Shown piece after piece: positions 13,560 to 62,638 of a stretch of 64,000 nt of DNA. The DNA comes from Nosocomiicoccus ampullae. GTDB taxonomy: Bacteria; Bacillota; Bacilli; Staphylococcales; Salinicoccaceae. Position 1 is the stretch's first letter. The number at the start of each line of letters is the position of its first letter. The translations under genes and the position numbers were made by a program. The notes under the pieces were generated by a model. That model was not told where the DNA came from. It was given only the letters and a program-made list of their open reading frames with translations, and did no database searches. The stretch lies in the NCBI RefSeq assembly GCF_001696685.1, contig NZ_MBFG01000003.1, positions 32,508 through 96,507 of the forward strand, in the 5' to 3' direction.

Positions 13560-15260
13560 ATGGCACTTGACGGAAATTTTATACATGAACTCATGAACGA
13601 ATTTACTCCACTAAAAGGTGGACGTATTAATAAAATTCATCAAATCGATCCGTATACAATTATATTAAAAATACGTGCAGAACGTAAAACACAAACACTT
13701 TTAGTGAGTTGCCACCCAAGTTTAGCACGTATTCATTTTACAAATGAATCTTACGAAACACCGTTTGAACCGCCGATGTTTTTACGCATGTTACGTCGTG
13801 ATTTAGAGTCTGGAATTATTAGAGATATTAAGCAAATCGGTAATGACCGCCGCATTCATATGAGGGTTACGAATCGCGACGAAATCGGTGACGAAATCGA
13901 ACGAGAGCTCATCATTGAAATTATGGGTAGACACTCGAACATCATTTTAACGGATGAACATAAACAAATCATTTTTGCGATGAAGCACATATCGATCTCT
14001 GAAAACGAGCGCCCGATTCAACCAGGGATACAGTACGAGGCACCGCCAACGAAAAAGAAGTTAAATCCTAGAACTGAAGAAATTAACGACTTACCAAAAT
14101 ATATTGACTTTAACGGTGGGAAACTGAATCGACAAATTTTAAATAACGTCGAAGGTGTGAGTTTACAATTTATTGAAGAAGCTGAGCACCGTGTAAAGTT
14201 CTGGAACATCAAAAATATCGTGAGTGGTATTGAAGAGACACTGAGTGCTTTATCTTTAAATCCAACATTGTACATCGGTAATAGAGATGCGTTTTACTAT
14301 AGTGAACTCGAGACTTTAAATCATCAATATGATGAAAAAATCCACTTCGATACGCTCTCAGAATTACTCGATGAATTTTATCATTCAAGATATATTAAAC
14401 AAAATATAAAACGACAAGCGAACGATTACTTGTATGTCATCGAGCAAAATTATGACAAAACGAAGCGTAAAATCGAAAAGTTAAATGAAGATATCGAAGA
14501 GTCTCACCGTAAAGAGGACTATCAAAAGTACGGTGAATTGCTGACGGCATACATGCACGAGTTACAACCGTATAGCGAGGAAGCGAAAGTCTTCGATTAC
14601 TATGAAAATAAAGAAATTACGATTCCGCTAAAAGTGCACTTATCACCTGCGGATAATGCACAAAGATATTATCACTTATACAATAAGATGAAAAACCGAG
14701 AAATTGAAGCGGAAAAGCAACTCGAAATTGCGAAGATGGATTTAAATTATCTCGAGACGTTACTACATCAAATGGAGAGTATTTCAACTACCGAAGAGGT
14801 CGAAGATATCCGTGAGGAACTGATGTCAGAAGGAATCATCAAAGAGAAGAAGCGCAGAAAGCGTAAGAAGAAGCATGCGGTTCATCTTAATAAATATAAA
14901 ACGTCAAACGGTTTAACGGTCCTCGTCGGTAAAAATAATACGCAAAATGATTATTTAACAAACCGTCATGCGAGTAAAAATCATCTGTGGTTCCACGTCA
15001 AAGATATGCCAGGAAGTCACGTCGTCATTATGCATGTTGCCGACGAGATCACTGAAGACGATATAATGGAAGCTGCGAAAATCGCTGCGTATCACTCAAA
15101 AGGAAAAGAATCACAATCAGTCCCAGTCGATTACACAGAAATCCGACATGTCAAAAACATCCCAGGCACAAAACCCGGGTTCGTCACGTACACCGATCAA
15201 AAAACAGTGTACGTCACACCGGTAGAACGAGAAATCCGTCTAATGGAAGACTCGGAGTAG
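13560..15260 (+). CDS. rqcH: Ribosome quality-control factor RqcH (NFACT/Rqc2 family)
   Basis: RqcH binds stalled 50S-peptidyl-tRNA complexes and adds alanine tails that mark the unfinished protein for degradation. Earlier annotations call this family fibronectin-binding protein FbpA/YloA. The 566-aa protein has an NFACT-N domain with the conserved DR pair (IGNDRRIHM), a central coiled coil (about 290-440, rich in K and E), and a C-terminal NFACT-R domain (NHLWFHVKDMPGSHVVI). The start follows AGGAG. It is the only plus-strand gene in the first 40 kb and is convergent with pyrE across the repeat array. Confidence 0.95.
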   Translation: MALDGNFIHELMNEFTPLKGGRINKIHQIDPYTIILKIRAERKTQTLLVSCHPSLARIHFTNESYETPFEPPMFLRMLRRDLESGIIRDIKQIGNDRRIHMRVTNRDEIGDEIERELIIEIMGRHSNIILTDEHKQIIFAMKHISISENERPIQPGIQYEAPPTKKKLNPRTEEINDLPKYIDFNGGKLNRQILNNVEGVSLQFIEEAEHRVKFWNIKNIVSGIEETLSALSLNPTLYIGNRDAFYYSELETLNHQYDEKIHFDTLSELLDEFYHSRYIKQNIKRQANDYLYVIEQNYDKTKRKIEKLNEDIEESHRKEDYQKYGELLTAYMHELQPYSEEAKVFDYYENKEITIPLKVHLSPADNAQRYYHLYNKMKNREIEAEKQLEIAKMDLNYLETLLHQMESISTTEEVEDIREELMSEGIIKEKKRRKRKKKHAVHLNKYKTSNGLTVLVGKNNTQNDYLTNRHASKNHLWFHVKDMPGSHVVIMHVADEITEDDIMEAAKIAAYHSKGKESQSVPVDYTEIRHVKNIPGTKPGFVTYTDQKTVYVTPVEREIRLMEDSE

Positions 15261-15338: not shown

Positions 15339-15616
15339 CGTCGGTGAGATTGGATTTTCGCCGACAATTCGGATTATCGTCGGCGAATGGATTTTTTCAC
15401 CGTCGCAGAACGGACTTTCGTCGGCGAATTTTTTATTCACCGACGGGAAAGACAGTATCGTCGGCGAAAAACCCGAAACTCAAAATTTCACCGACGATTC
15501 GACCGTTACCGTCGGCGAACTGAATTTTCACCGACGATTTCCTTATTAACGACGGTTAACTTTTCATTTCACCGACGATTCAGCTTATCGACGGCGAGAC
15601 CGATCTTTCACCGACG
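15339..15616. repeat. Array of 14 alternating inverted GC-rich arms, about 40-bp period
   Basis: Ten-base arms of type A (CGTCGGCGAA) and type B (TTCACCGACG) alternate seven times. A arms start at 15339, 15378, 15419, 15459, 15510, 15550 and 15589; B arms start at 15357, 15396, 15436, 15487, 15527, 15568 and 15607. A to B spacing is 17-18 bases (28 once and 17 or 18 otherwise), and B to A is 21-23. A is the reverse complement of B apart from one position, so every neighbour pair can form a stem. B arms are often followed by ATT. The spacers are AT-rich and not conserved. Two short open frames across the array are low-complexity (FHRRF-like) and not credible proteins. I do not recognise a named repeat family. 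Confidence 0.85.
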
Positions 15617-15675: not shown

Positions 15676-15712
15676 ACAAAAAAGAAGAACTCGGCGCAAT
15701 CGCCGAGTTCTT
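15676..15712 (-). terminator. Terminator of the pyr operon
   Basis: A 12-bp perfect stem (AAGAACTCGGCG / CGCCGAGTTCTT, 15685-15696 and 15701-15712, loop CAAT) begins six bases after the pyrE stop and is followed on the minus strand by CTTTTTTG. It may also act weakly on the plus strand. Confidence 0.9.
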
Positions 15713-15717
15713 TCATT

Positions 15718-16326
15718 TTATAAGTTATCTCTAAAGTTTTTAACGACTTCGATGTCCGCTTCACTGAGTCTGTTTGTTTCTTCGCATAGTTCAAGCATTT
15801 CATCGATTGTGCTTAAACTTCTGTATTCTAATCCTGCTGCTTCAAAGTTTTCTTTTAGTACGTCTAGTTCATAACTAAATACACTCATCACGGATATGAC
15901 TTCAGCGCCTGCTTCTTTTAAAGCGTCTGCTGCTTTTAGGCTAGAACCACCTGTTGAGAATAGGTCTTCAATCAAGATCACTTTTTTACCTTCGACGTCG
16001 CCGCCTTCGATTTGTTTTCCTGCACCGTGCTTTTTCTTTTCACCGCGCACGTACACCATCGGTAAGTCGAGACCTGCTGCTAAAAATGCTGCGTGCGGAA
16101 TGCCAGCTGTTGCTGTACCGGCGATAACTTCAACGTCGCTATAGTTTTCTTTAATCTTTTCAATGAATAACGTAATAAGTTCTTTTCTCTCTTTCGGGAA
16201 TCCTATCGTTTTACGGTTATCACAATAGATTGGAGATTTAATGCCACTTGCCCATGTAAATGGATCGTTCGGTTGAATTTTAACCGCTTCGATATCTAAT
16301 AAAATTTCTGATACACGTTTACTCAT
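15718..16326 (-). CDS. pyrE: Orotate phosphoribosyltransferase
   Basis: Makes orotidine 5'-phosphate from orotate and PRPP. The 202-aa product has FTWASGIKSPIYCDNR near the N-terminus, the flexible-loop lysines in VRGEKKKHGAGKQIEG, and the PRPP-binding motif KVILIEDLFSTGGSS. The ATG at 16326 follows GGGAGGGGAAATA and overlaps the pyrF stop by one base; a five-residue longer frame is rejected. It is the last gene of the pyr operon. Confidence 0.96.
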   Translation of the reverse strand: MSKRVSEILLDIEAVKIQPNDPFTWASGIKSPIYCDNRKTIGFPKERKELITLFIEKIKENYSDVEVIAGTATAGIPHAAFLAAGLDLPMVYVRGEKKKHGAGKQIEGGDVEGKKVILIEDLFSTGGSSLKAADALKEAGAEVISVMSVFSYELDVLKENFEAAGLEYRSLSTIDEMLELCEETNRLSEADIEVVKNFRDNL

Positions 16327-17018
16327 TATTTCCCCTCCCACATTGCTTTGATTTTATGATAACTTTCAACTGGATTATCTGACTGAGTAATCGGGCGACC
16401 TACTACGATATAGTTTGAACCGAGTCGTCTCGCTTCGTCTGGTGTTACGATACGTACTTGGTCGTCTGTTTGACTCTCTTTTAGACGAATCCCCGGTGTA
16501 ATTGTTAAAAAGTCTGGACCAATTTTTTCGTGTAGCATTTGACTTTCTAATGGAGATGAAACAACTCCATCTAAACCAGCGTCGTATGTGAGTTGTGCTA
16601 AGTTTAGCACTGAATCTCTTAACGATAATTTTGACTGAAGTTCGTGTTCAACCATATGTTCGTTCGTACTCGTTAACTCAGTAACCGCAATACAAATTCC
16701 GTCTGGATTATATTCTTTAAAGCTTTCGTTTGCACGTCTCATCATTTCACTTCCACCGCGTGCATGTACGTTTACCATCTGTACGTCTAAACGTCCAAGT
16801 CCTGCCATCGTACGTGACACAGTGTTCGGGATATCATGAAGTTTTAAATCTAAAAACAAATCATGTCCCATCGCGCGAATTTCTTTAAGGACGTTATGCC
16901 CTTCAAGCATATATAATTCCATTCCAACTTTAACGTATAGTTTTTCATCGAATTGTTTTAAGAAGTTTTCGACCTCTTCATAACGATTAAAGTCAAGTGC
17001 AATAATTGGTGTATTCAT
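16326..17018 (-). CDS. pyrF: Orotidine 5'-phosphate decarboxylase
   Basis: Decarboxylates OMP to UMP, the final step of de novo synthesis. The 230-aa barrel shows the catalytic [11 protein letters not shown], then ITPGIRL and the phosphate-binding VVGRPITQS. It lies nine bases downstream of pyrD. Confidence 0.96.
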
Positions 17019-60223: not shown

Positions 60224-62638
60224 CTATTTATCCTTCACTCTCATCAGTCGCAAACTATTTAATGCTACCAAAATAGTGGCTCCCATATCGGAAAGAATCG
60301 CAATCCAAAGGGTTAGCCAGCCTGGAATAACCAATAGTAAGGCAATTATCTTAATTCCGATGGCAAACGTGATGTTCGCTTTGATGATATTTAGCGTTTT
60401 CCTGCTAAGTCTTACTGCAAATGGAAGCTTACTTAAATCATCTCCCATTAATGCAATATCAGCTGTCTCGATGGCAGTATCTGTTCCAGAACCGCCCATT
60501 GCAATGCCAACAGTGGATGCAGCAAGTGCAGGAGCATCATTGACGCCATCGCCAATCATAGCTACATTACCATGCTCGGCTTTCATTTTTTTAATATAGT
60601 CCAACTTATCCTGTGGCATCAATTCGGACTGAATATCAGAAACGCCTACATGAGCACCGATTGCTTCTGCGGTACCTTGATTATCACCTGTCAGCATAAT
60701 TGTTTGCTTGATTCCTAACTGATGAAGTTTTTGAATCACATTTTTACTTGTTTCGCGGACCTCATCTGCTACAGCAATCACGCCGAGGATTGTTTGGTCC
60801 GTTCCAATAATCATGGCCGTTTTCCCTTGGTTTTGTAAAACTTTCACTTTATTTTCAAACTCAAGGCTAAAATCGGAAACATTTAATTCTTTAAAAAGCC
60901 TTGGACTGCCAATATAATAGGTTGTTCCATCTATATTCCCTTGAATGCCCCGACCTGTAATAGAAGTGAAGTCTTCCACTCTAACATCGGAATAAGTAAT
61001 ATTATCTTGCTCTGCTTTCTTCATTGTTGCTGAAGCAAGTGGATGTTGTGATCGATATTCTAAAGCTGTAATAATGGAAAACAGCTCTTTTTCTTCCACT
61101 TGATCATTTAACACTTTAAAATCTGTTACCACTGGTACACCTTTTGTCAGTGTTCCTGTTTTATCAAATGCGATTGCCTTAATGGCTCCTAATTCCTCTA
61201 GATAGACACCGCCTTTAATCAACACACCTTTTTTAGCTGCATTTCCAATTGCCGAGACAATCGAGATTGGAGTAGAAATAACTAATGCACACGGACATCC
61301 AACTACAAGTATCGCTAATCCTTGATAAACCCAAGTATCCCAACTTCCACCAAAGAATAAAGGTGGAACGACTGCAACGAGCGCCGCAATAACCATAATG
61401 ATCGGAGTATAATATTTCGCAAATTTATCTACGAATGCTTGCGCTGGAGCGCGCTCCCCTTGTGCTTCCTCAACCAGATGAATAATCTTGGAGATGGTTG
61501 TATCCTCTACGTATTTGGTGATTTTTACTTCAAGTAGTCCCTCTTCGTTAAGCGTACCTGCAAATACTTCATCATCTACCGTTTTGGCAACAGGGACAGA
61601 TTCTCCTGTTATAGCAGCCTGGTTGACAGCCGACACCCCATTTATAATGATCCCATCCATGGCAATTTTCTCCCCTGGTTTGACGATCATAATATCACCC
61701 ACGGCGATATCGTCCACATGGATCATTATTTCCTGACCATTCCGCCTAACAAGTGCTTCTTTTGGAGCAATATCCATCAATGAACGAATGGACTGTCTTG
61801 CTCTATCCATAGAAAAACGTTCAAGTGCTTCACTGATTGCAAAGAGAATGACAACAATGGATGCCTCTGCCCATTCACCAATGATGGCAGCTCCAATAAC
61901 TGCAACGGTCATAAGGGTTTTCATGTCGAAATCAAAGCGTATCAAATTTTGAAAACCAACTTTAAATAGTGAATATCCGCCAATTACAATCGAACTTACA
62001 AATAACATGGAAGTTACAAGGTTATCTTCTCCATTTACAAAGTGAGAAAGGTAACCAAAAGCAATCATTAATGTGGCAAACAGCAATGTGCTGTGCTTTT
62101 TATAAAACGGTATTTTCTCTTCTTTAAGAGCCTTAGTGTCTTCTTTGACCGCTTGTATCGATGGATTCGCCAGTTTTTCAGGAATTACCTTAAGATTCTC
62201 GAAAGCACCTGCTTTTTCAAGCTCTTCAACCGATGCATTTCCATATACATCAATTTTGGAAGCTCCGAAATTGACTTTAGCATCATGCACCCCTGGTAGT
62301 TCTTTTACATTTTTTTCAAACTTCCCAGCACAGTTTGCGCAAGAAAATCCCTCCACACGGTAAACATTTTTATCTTCTGTTACCACTGGTTCGACCCGTC
62401 TTCTAGTCTTCTCTGGTGCCACTTTAAGATTCTCGAAAGCACCAGCCTTTTCCAAATCTTCAACAGTTGCACTGCCAAAGACATCAATTTTGGAAGCTCC
62501 GAAATTGACTTTAGCATCATGCACCCCTGGTAGTTCTTTTACATTTTTTTCAAACTTCCCAGCACAATTCGCACACGAGAAACCCTCCACACGGTAAACC
62601 TGTTTATCTTCTGTTAATGTTTTTGTTGAACTATCCAA
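60224..62638 (-). CDS. cadA: Cadmium-exporting P1B-type ATPase with two heavy-metal domains
   Basis: CadA pumps Cd2+, Zn2+ and Pb2+ out of the cell. The 804-aa protein has two nearly identical N-terminal metal-binding domains with [14 protein letters not shown] (about 20-75 and 95-155), eight membrane helices, the CPC motif ([14 protein letters not shown]), phosphorylation site [16 protein letters not shown] and [18 protein letters not shown] 62638 lies nine bases after GGGAGG; a frame three codons longer overlaps that site. The single-domain plasmid CadA is shorter (about 727 aa). It overlaps cadC by eight bases. Confidence 0.96.

What the first reader, a model, noticed from the sequence alone, without database searches (positions are those of the whole stretch)
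15339..15616. Fourteen-arm alternating inverted repeat array between rqcH and pyrE
Ten-base arms A (CGTCGGCGAA) and B (TTCACCGACG) alternate seven times with a strict 17-18/21-23 spacing (about two helical turns each, 40-bp period), broken once by an 11-base insertion. Spacers are not conserved, so the arms themselves appear selected. Such phasing fits a multimeric DNA-binding site, a chain of RNA hairpins, or a repeat family spread in the genome. It does not match a repeat I know.
Basis: seen in the sequence. Interest (0 to 1): 0.75.

Follow-up and report, generated by a model that had tools for sequence, protein, structure and literature searches.

The report
Mobile phased DNA arrays with nuclease partner
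The odd repeat between two bacterial genes looks like one stranded copy of a large, apparently undescribed family of mobile DNA arrays, whose repeat units are spaced in whole turns of the DNA helix and which often sit beside a gene for a DNA-cutting-type protein.

Summary
The array is real. Diverged copies sit at several loci in the three Nosocomiicoccus genomes held and in none of the other 30 family genomes. In the nearest relative one copy directly follows a gene for a NERD protein, a predicted PD-(D/E)XK nuclease with zinc ribbon and winged helix. Of 59 NERD loci examined, 46 have an array of period 38-54 or 61-62 bp (about 4, 5 or 6 helical turns) within 900 bp, mostly just behind the gene. 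Array period largely follows the NERD tree, also within single genomes. One single-contig genome has about 29 solo arrays related to its NERD-linked ones. Sister species lack the array at the same site in 16 of 27 comparisons; one site shows a 6-7 bp target duplication. Best reading: a solo, non-autonomous copy of a nuclease-plus-array element, working like REPIN/RAYT but unrelated to it. Binding, cutting and insertion route are inferred. I found no such pairing in print (open-access search).

The parts
15339..15616 (.). whole 14-arm array (solo copy of the array family)
   Evidence: profile R1 hits 15378-15577 (+) and 15378-15556 (-)
15339..15468 (+). left half: arms A1 15339, B1 15357, A2 15378, B2 15396, A3 15419, B3 15436, A4 15459 (10 bases each)
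15469..15486 (.).
   Evidence: same 28/27 start spacing in the copies of alignment A1
15487..15616 (-). right half: arms B4 15487, A5 15510, B5 15527, A6 15550, B6 15568, A7 15589, B7 15607; mirror image of the left half in spacing
13560..15260 (+). rqcH, upstream gene, convergent
   Evidence: name from the finding; 96% identity to the N. massiliensis protein
15684..15713 (.). terminator-like hairpin, found on both strands, at the end of pyrE
15718..16341 (-). pyrE, downstream gene, convergent
   Evidence: name from the finding

Best explanation
The array is a solo, non-autonomous member of a family of mobile intergenic arrays. Each family belongs to a NERD protein: a predicted PD-(D/E)XK nuclease with a C4 zinc ribbon and a C-terminal winged helix, usually encoded beside a master array. 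Proposed working: the winged helix reads the arms as phased sites, NERD molecules assemble along the array, and the nuclease cuts or nicks there and at intergenic target sites, so that repair copies arrays into new places, mostly behind gene ends. Shown: copies, phasing, gene-array adjacency, period following the NERD tree, solo arrays, presence/absence between species, one target duplication. Inferred: binding, cutting, oligomer formation, the copying mechanism, and that the window's family belongs to the NERD type found at G001:C54.
For: Copies in 3 of 3 Nosocomiicoccus genomes held and 0 of the other 30 family genomes. Arms are conserved and spacers much less among window/G001 paralogues (arms 0.81-0.88, spacers 0.42-0.69). 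In G001 (N. massiliensis) a copy starts about 100 bp behind an intact NERD gene. NERD genes: 46 of 59 loci with an array within 900 bp (41 of period 38-54, 5 of 61-62); 50 of 115 windows of 900 bp next to NERD genes against 1 of 183 further off in the same loci, for arrays of 39-42, 50-52 or 60-63 bp (Fisher 2e-23). Within the scanned range of 36-66 bp the periods fall only at 41-42, 50-52 and 61-62, one coding-type repeat of 66 aside. Period class needs 22 changes on the tree of 82 NERDs against a shuffled mean of 46.6 (0 of 200 as low); G012, G009, G004, G005, G072, G042 and G158 each hold two or more classes. Q81, D83, K98 and four cysteines are invariant and E96 nearly so in 16 aligned homologues; model pLDDT 90; nuclease-fold and winged-helix neighbours. 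G012 has about 29 solo array loci. At one site 5 species are empty and the G012 insert has CATTAAA/ATTAAA on both sides; over 9 sites, 16 of 27 comparisons with congeners show no array and 6 show an array without similarity to the one in G012. In G003 the orthologous NERD gene is split over two frames, and between G002 and G003 the arms are less conserved than the spacers (0.77 and 0.76 against 0.88 and 0.86).
Against: The window's own genome is not held, and the window shows only weak NERD hits (best E 0.014, a C-terminal stretch). The window-type array is not a clean tandem (TRF does not see it), and its nearest NERD groups with two 52-bp-array NERDs, whereas its own A-A spacing is 39-41 with one 51. 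13 of 59 NERD loci show no array of these periods by TRF, and 22 of the 82 rows of the tree carry none; some clades mix classes (for example 41 bp at L204 and L224 within a mostly 51-bp clade). In 5 of 27 comparisons the congener carries an array similar to that of G012 at the same site, so not all differ. The target duplication is clean at one locus only; at the seven other loci it was not. At 10.5 bp per turn the arm centres of the window array are not in phase. Copies at orthologous loci in Nosocomiicoccus species show that some arrays stay put for a long time. One copy (G001:C54:1816-2015) lies between divergent genes. The G003 frameshift could be a sequencing error. Arms were the basis on which copies were found, which favours their conservation.
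Confidence: 0.6

Rival explanations
1. Host-serving chromosomal sites: arrays are binding platforms for a nucleoid or supercoiling protein (REP/BIME-like), kept behind gene ends, and the NERD protein is their dedicated binder rather than a mobilising nuclease.
For: Orthologous placement between convergent genes at five loci in Nosocomiicoccus; 10 convergent, 10 same-strand, 0 divergent of 20 solo arrays in G012 (flanks called from open reading frames, two of them short and unsure); spacing plan held while spacers diverge.
Against: 16 of 27 comparisons with congeners show no array at the site and 6 show an array of unlike sequence; many unlike array families in one genome; conserved nuclease residues; patchy across genera: no NERD match in any of the 25 genomes of genus g8 in the order search.
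Confidence: 0.2
2. Transcribed chain of RNA hairpins (terminator, mRNA 3' stabiliser or sRNA source).
For: Inverted arms with 7-8 base loops; inverted repeats are enriched in the units of other arrays (18 of 46 at p<0.05, Fisher 9e-15); in the window the array lies before the terminator-like hairpin at 15684-15713, so an rqcH transcript could include it.
Against: No pairing register is consistently preferred, and A-C mismatches are common on the + strand; in G001:C85 a terminator-like inverted repeat stands before the array (2291-2340 in L094), which would keep it untranscribed from that side; periods step by about 10.3 bp, as expected of B-DNA; no listed Rfam match reaches its cut-off.
Confidence: 0.1
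3. Addiction or decoy pair: the array titrates its own nuclease, so loss of the array frees the nuclease (toxin-antitoxin-like), and solo arrays are protective sponges.
For: Same adjacency and period data; weak similarity to NERD parts of defence proteins such as PglW and MkoA; NERD domains occur in defence systems (PMC10952713, one passage seen).
Against: No direct evidence; no match of one NERD query on 72,556 plasmid or 50,697 phage records at 1e-5, where addiction pairs are common (recalled).
Confidence: 0.08
4. Neutral slippage product without function.
For: Unit number varies widely among arrays of G012 (4.5-16.9 units).
Against: Arms constrained and spacing fixed among diverged paralogues; quantised periods; NERD linkage.
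Confidence: 0.02

Closest known systems
REPIN/RAYT (REP doublets with REP-associated tyrosine transposases)
   Same: Dispersed intergenic palindromic repeats; each family linked to a distinct nuclease-type gene with its repeats beside it; most copies solo; mostly between same-strand or convergent genes (abstract of PMC3733652; passages of PMC3116915, some from its abstract).
   Different: The partner is a NERD PD-(D/E)XK protein with zinc ribbon and winged helix, not a Y1/HUH protein; arrays of many units with 41/51/61-bp periods instead of one doublet.
STAR elements of Staphylococcus
   Same: Interspersed intergenic repeat arrays with expanding and contracting unit number; positions differ between species; function, origin and means of spread unknown (PMC3532100: abstract, passages and section 6 seen).
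False-CRISPR tandem repeats
   Same: Regular repeat-spacer look without diverse spacers or companion cas genes (PMC5294841, passages). NERD is listed among putative CRISPR auxiliary genes in a figure legend of PMC10910872 (one passage), perhaps because such arrays resemble CRISPRs (my guess).
   Different: Helically quantised period and a nuclease-type partner gene of their own.
parC/ParR-type phased centromere arrays (recalled, no call)
   Same: Sites of about 20 bp in series that could carry a nucleoprotein filament.
   Different: Several to dozens of copies per chromosome, turnover between species, partner is a nuclease-fold protein; no ParM/ParR gene was looked for.

Membership tests
NERD-linked phased array class (defined here) | array period of about 4, 5 or 6 helical turns | tested here: met
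   window A-A starts 39-41 apart and 51 across the centre
NERD-linked phased array class (defined here) | a copy of the same family lies beside a NERD gene | tested here: met
   G001:C54 array behind an intact NERD gene; the orthologous place in G003 has array and broken NERD gene
NERD-linked phased array class (defined here) | cognate NERD gene in the same genome | not testable with these tools
   the window's assembly is not held; no convincing NERD hit in the window itself
REPIN/RAYT | partner gene is a Y1/HUH tyrosine transposase | tested here: not met
   partner is PF08378 NERD, nuclease-fold neighbours of the PD-(D/E)XK kind
REPIN/RAYT | 20-40 bp REP with GTAG or CGTC tag, in inverted doublets | tested here: not met
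   arms begin CGTC, but the element is a 14-arm array with 40-bp period, not a doublet of 20-40 bp palindromes
STAR element | T(G/A/T)TGTTG(G/T)GGCCC(C/A) motif | tested here: not met
   0 matches in the window with up to 2 mismatches
CRISPR array | same-orientation repeats with unrelated spacers | tested here: not met
   arms alternate in orientation with 7-18 base spacers
CRISPR array | cas genes nearby | not tested
   no search for cas genes was made
structured RNA family of Rfam | match at or above gathering score | tested here: not met
   best 28.9 bits against a cut-off of 114
insertion sequence/transposon | target-site duplication around the insert | tested here: inconclusive
   6-7 bp at one locus of G012; seven other loci not clean; for the window copy no empty site was seen in the genus

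The most novel reading that the evidence does not exclude
NERD proteins of Bacilli drive a new kind of mobile element: a site-specific PD-(D/E)XK nuclease that assembles along its own helically phased palindromic array and copies or converts arrays into gene-end sites. Many independent NERD-array specificities compete within one genome, leaving dozens of solo arrays; the window array is one such solo copy. STAR-like arrays in Staphylococcus might be relics of the same kind.
Probability: 0.4. Interest if true: 0.92.

Novelty: categorically new. Interest (0 to 1): 0.82.

Why it matters
If right, a common but poorly assigned protein family (NERD) gets a substrate, and many intergenic tandem arrays in Bacilli, some perhaps misread as CRISPRs or treated as anonymous satellites, get a cause. 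It would be a second, independent route to the REPIN/RAYT lifestyle with a different nuclease, and would make the open question of how such arrays spread directly testable with one protein and one DNA fragment. Series of NERD proteins with different array specificities would also be a natural set for learning how the winged helix reads DNA.

Tried and rejected
Pattern search with tight spacing in 20 relatives found nothing: its spacing did not fit the later seen copies; a second pattern found four places in G001 only, and a sequence profile was needed for the rest. A profile hit at window 43122 lies inside a coding sequence (coaD by recognition) with a low score and was dropped; so were its like in G001:C121 and other low-scoring rows. 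RNA covariation: no register preferred; two structure strings were printed for the pair-counting tool, which I then did not run. Plasmids and phages: no DNA match, no NERD match; viral contigs: no pattern match. My first control (76 rqcH loci, L017-L092) gave 17 of 506 windows of 2.7 kb with an array of 38-54 bp, but it is not clean: most of those are intergenic arrays of 50-52 bp in Cohnella and Paenibacillus, that is, perhaps the same phenomenon. I therefore rely on the within-locus control, whose period classes were chosen after seeing the data. The crude dyad test on whole units was weak and was followed by a local inverted-repeat test, which allows many loop lengths; its shuffles are treated alike. 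A search for the prsA locus in G001 landed on two contigs and gave no empty site. Solved-structure sequence search gave nothing convincing. Of the structure matches only the nuclease-fold and winged-helix ones were used.

Literature searches that listed no report of NERD genes with arrays: (open-access papers, top rows only where the list was long); two searches looked up STAR and REPIN/RAYT. A description elsewhere cannot be excluded.

Mended on rereading: the number of g8 genomes (25), the counts including related arrays, and the statement that period always follows the clade (it does so largely).

Full report
WHAT IS THERE. The window holds 14 ten-base arms at 15339-15616 in strict alternation between rqcH and pyrE, which converge. 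The motif CGTCGGYGAA occurs 10 times in 64 kb, nine of them here; shuffles give 0.2 on average, at most 2. The start-to-start spacings are 18,21,18,23,17,23,28,23,17,23,18,21,18: an exact palindrome. The arms are quasi-palindromic (TCGYCGRCGA); their centres lie 19-21 bp apart with one step of 30, which is two turns and three turns at about 10 bp per turn. At 10.5 bp per turn the phase is lost over the whole array (coherence 0.08 against 0.92 at 10.0), so strict same-face geometry would need slight overwinding or a superhelical path.

COPIES. The window's own assembly is not held; the nearest genome is G001, whose rqcH contig has the length (34273) of the Nosocomiicoccus massiliensis NP2 contig that encodes a 96% identical RqcH. 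A profile of nine copies (A1, R1) finds matches in 3 of 33 genomes of the family, all three of the window's genus (G001-G003), at several loci in each. They lie at rqcH/pyrE (window, G001, G002, G003), NERD gene/ABC ATPase (G001, G003), pbuX/guaD (G001, G002 twice) or pbuX/groEL (G003 twice), prsA/abgT (G002, G003) and hemQ/agcS (G002, G003), all between convergent genes, plus one between divergent genes (G001:C54:1816-2015) and one at a contig end beyond acpP (G001:C118), where the context cannot be told (gene names by recognition of the translations). The 28- or 27-base centre recurs in the nine aligned copies. In G001 the rqcH/pyrE array has two more outer units than the window. Across copies, spacers of the left half resemble reverse-complemented right halves of other copies (mean identity 0.494) nearly as well as other left halves (0.542), so the ancestor was probably a true long palindrome; within the window copy itself the spacers of the two halves agree at 0.30 only.

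CONSTRAINT. Among window and G001 paralogues arms are 0.81-0.88 identical while spacers are 0.42-0.69. In contrast, orthologues of G002 and G003 have arms less conserved than spacers (0.77 against 0.88, and 0.76 against 0.86). In G003 the NERD gene next to this array family is split over two frames; in G002 I saw no close orthologue, but that genome is incomplete. I read this as decay of GC-rich arms once the partner is lost; it is one lineage and could have other causes.

THE PARTNER. The G001 copy at C54:4892-5179 starts about 100 bp behind an intact gene for a NERD protein (Pfam PF08378). In G004 a NERD gene lies between the rqcH and pyrE matches too, without an array that TRF sees (L207); in P. 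pinnipedialis (L015) I saw neither by eye. NERD matches are multiple: 1-11 per genome in 32 of 33 family genomes (a few genes count as two pieces). In a sample of the order 39 of 80 genomes match, 7 of 47 outside the family; in a sample of the class with another query 17 of 151.

ARRAYS AT NERD GENES. I examined 59 NERD loci out of more than 150 listed matches, taken genome by genome. 41 have a tandem array of period 38-54 bp within 900 bp and five more one of 61-62 bp. Of the 13 without, L173 and L177 have duplicated blocks of about 240 bp, L175 has 51-bp spaced repeats on both sides, and L093 is the window family. In the call that lists single arrays in the range 36-66 bp the periods are 41 (23), 42 (3), 50 (1), 51 (14), 52 (8), 61 (2), 62 (3), and one repeat of 66 that looks coding and that I set aside; 45 of 55 arrays, this one included, lie on the 3' side of the gene. 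Within the same loci, 50 of 115 windows next to NERD genes hold such an array against 1 of 183 further away. Of 30 loci returned by the class search, 17 show an array of period 40-63 in the fetched stretch, 52 bp in 10 of them. Inverted repeats are enriched in the units (18 of 46 at p<0.05), though many units show no clear one.

COGNATE RELATION. On a tree of 82 NERD proteins (80 different) the period class, 'none' included, needs 22 changes; shuffles need 46.6 on average and none of 200 as few. One clade of 21 has 20 loci with 41 bp and one without array; a clade of 13 has ten with 52, one with 51, two without; a clade of 11 has seven with 61-62 and four without. G012, G009, G004, G005, G072, G042 and G158 each carry two or more classes, which sit in different parts of the tree; the fit is not perfect (for example two 41-bp loci within a mostly 51-bp clade, and 51 and 52 mixed in another). 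This is the strongest evidence that the protein and the geometry of its array belong together.

MOBILITY. In the single-contig genome G012 pieces of ten NERD arrays hit 40 loci in the 46 rows I copied from 149 matches, 11 beside NERD genes and 29 solo (an eleventh NERD match of G012 was not listed, so one solo array could be NERD-linked). Of 20 solo arrays fetched, 10 lie between convergent, 10 between same-strand and 0 between divergent genes, with 4.5-16.9 units of 41-42 bp. At queA-tgt (names by recognition) G012 has an insert of 769-770 bp; five congeners (G022-G026) have the empty site, and CATTAAA or ATTAAA stands on both sides of the insert; G021 has 14 bases there and no array, and G008 and G027 carry arrays at the same site. 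Over nine sites and 27 comparisons with congeners, 16 show no array (two with a short remnant similar to the G012 array), 6 show an array without similarity to that of G012, and 5 show a similar one. For example at L277 G022 has none, G026 a different 41-bp array and G008 a 51-bp array. For several loci the similarity with the sister genome ends just behind a terminator-like T-run (by eye).

HOW IT MOST LIKELY WORKS. NERD proteins bind the phased arms with their winged helix, assemble along the array, and cut or nick; repair or copying then founds or converts arrays at gene ends. Shown are adjacency, matching periods, dispersal and turnover. Not shown are binding, cutting and the copying route. 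The window array would be a solo copy, kept because a NERD protein still acts on it or recently did.

KNOWN OR NEW. It works like REPIN/RAYT, but the partner is unrelated and the repeat is built differently (PMC3116915 passages, PMC3733652 abstract). STAR elements (PMC3532100: abstract, passages, section 6) are the nearest array type I know in the order; their motif is absent from the window. Searches of open-access papers listed no report of NERD genes with such arrays. Outside the NERD-chosen set, 17 of 23 array rows of period 30-70 at 76 rqcH loci of other bacteria also have 50-52 bp, several in the interval behind rqcH, without a NERD gene in the fetched 21 kb or less. So the phased arrays reach beyond the genomes in which I saw the NERD link; whether those genomes have NERD partners elsewhere was not tested.

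Noticed in passing
L023-L075 (rqcH loci of Cohnella and Paenibacillus), e.g. L029:11776-12226, L032:11808-12207, L045:11781-12287: Intergenic tandem arrays of 50-52 bp period, several directly behind rqcH between convergent genes; no NERD gene found in those fetched loci.
   Followed up: partly
G003:C1:1204430-1204844 (L099) and G002:C82:1130-1546 (L097): Two window-type arrays side by side next to pbuX; the gene on the far side differs (groEL in G003, guanine deaminase in G002), so a rearrangement or gene loss lies beside the arrays.
   Followed up: no
window 62190-62616: 234-bp unit repeated 1.8 times at 90%; 234 is a multiple of 3, perhaps a duplicated protein segment.
   Followed up: no
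G001 and G002 contigs C145, C56, C83, C5, C22, C88, C4: Draft contigs end within a few hundred bases of NERD genes, as if the arrays broke the assembly; arrays may be under-counted in drafts.
   Followed up: no
L174, L176, L175, L181, L182, L195: Arrays stand on both sides of the NERD gene; recombination between them could remove the gene and leave a solo array.
   Followed up: no
PMC10910872, figure legend: NERD is listed as a putative CRISPR auxiliary gene; phased arrays beside NERD genes might have been counted as CRISPR-like.
   Followed up: no
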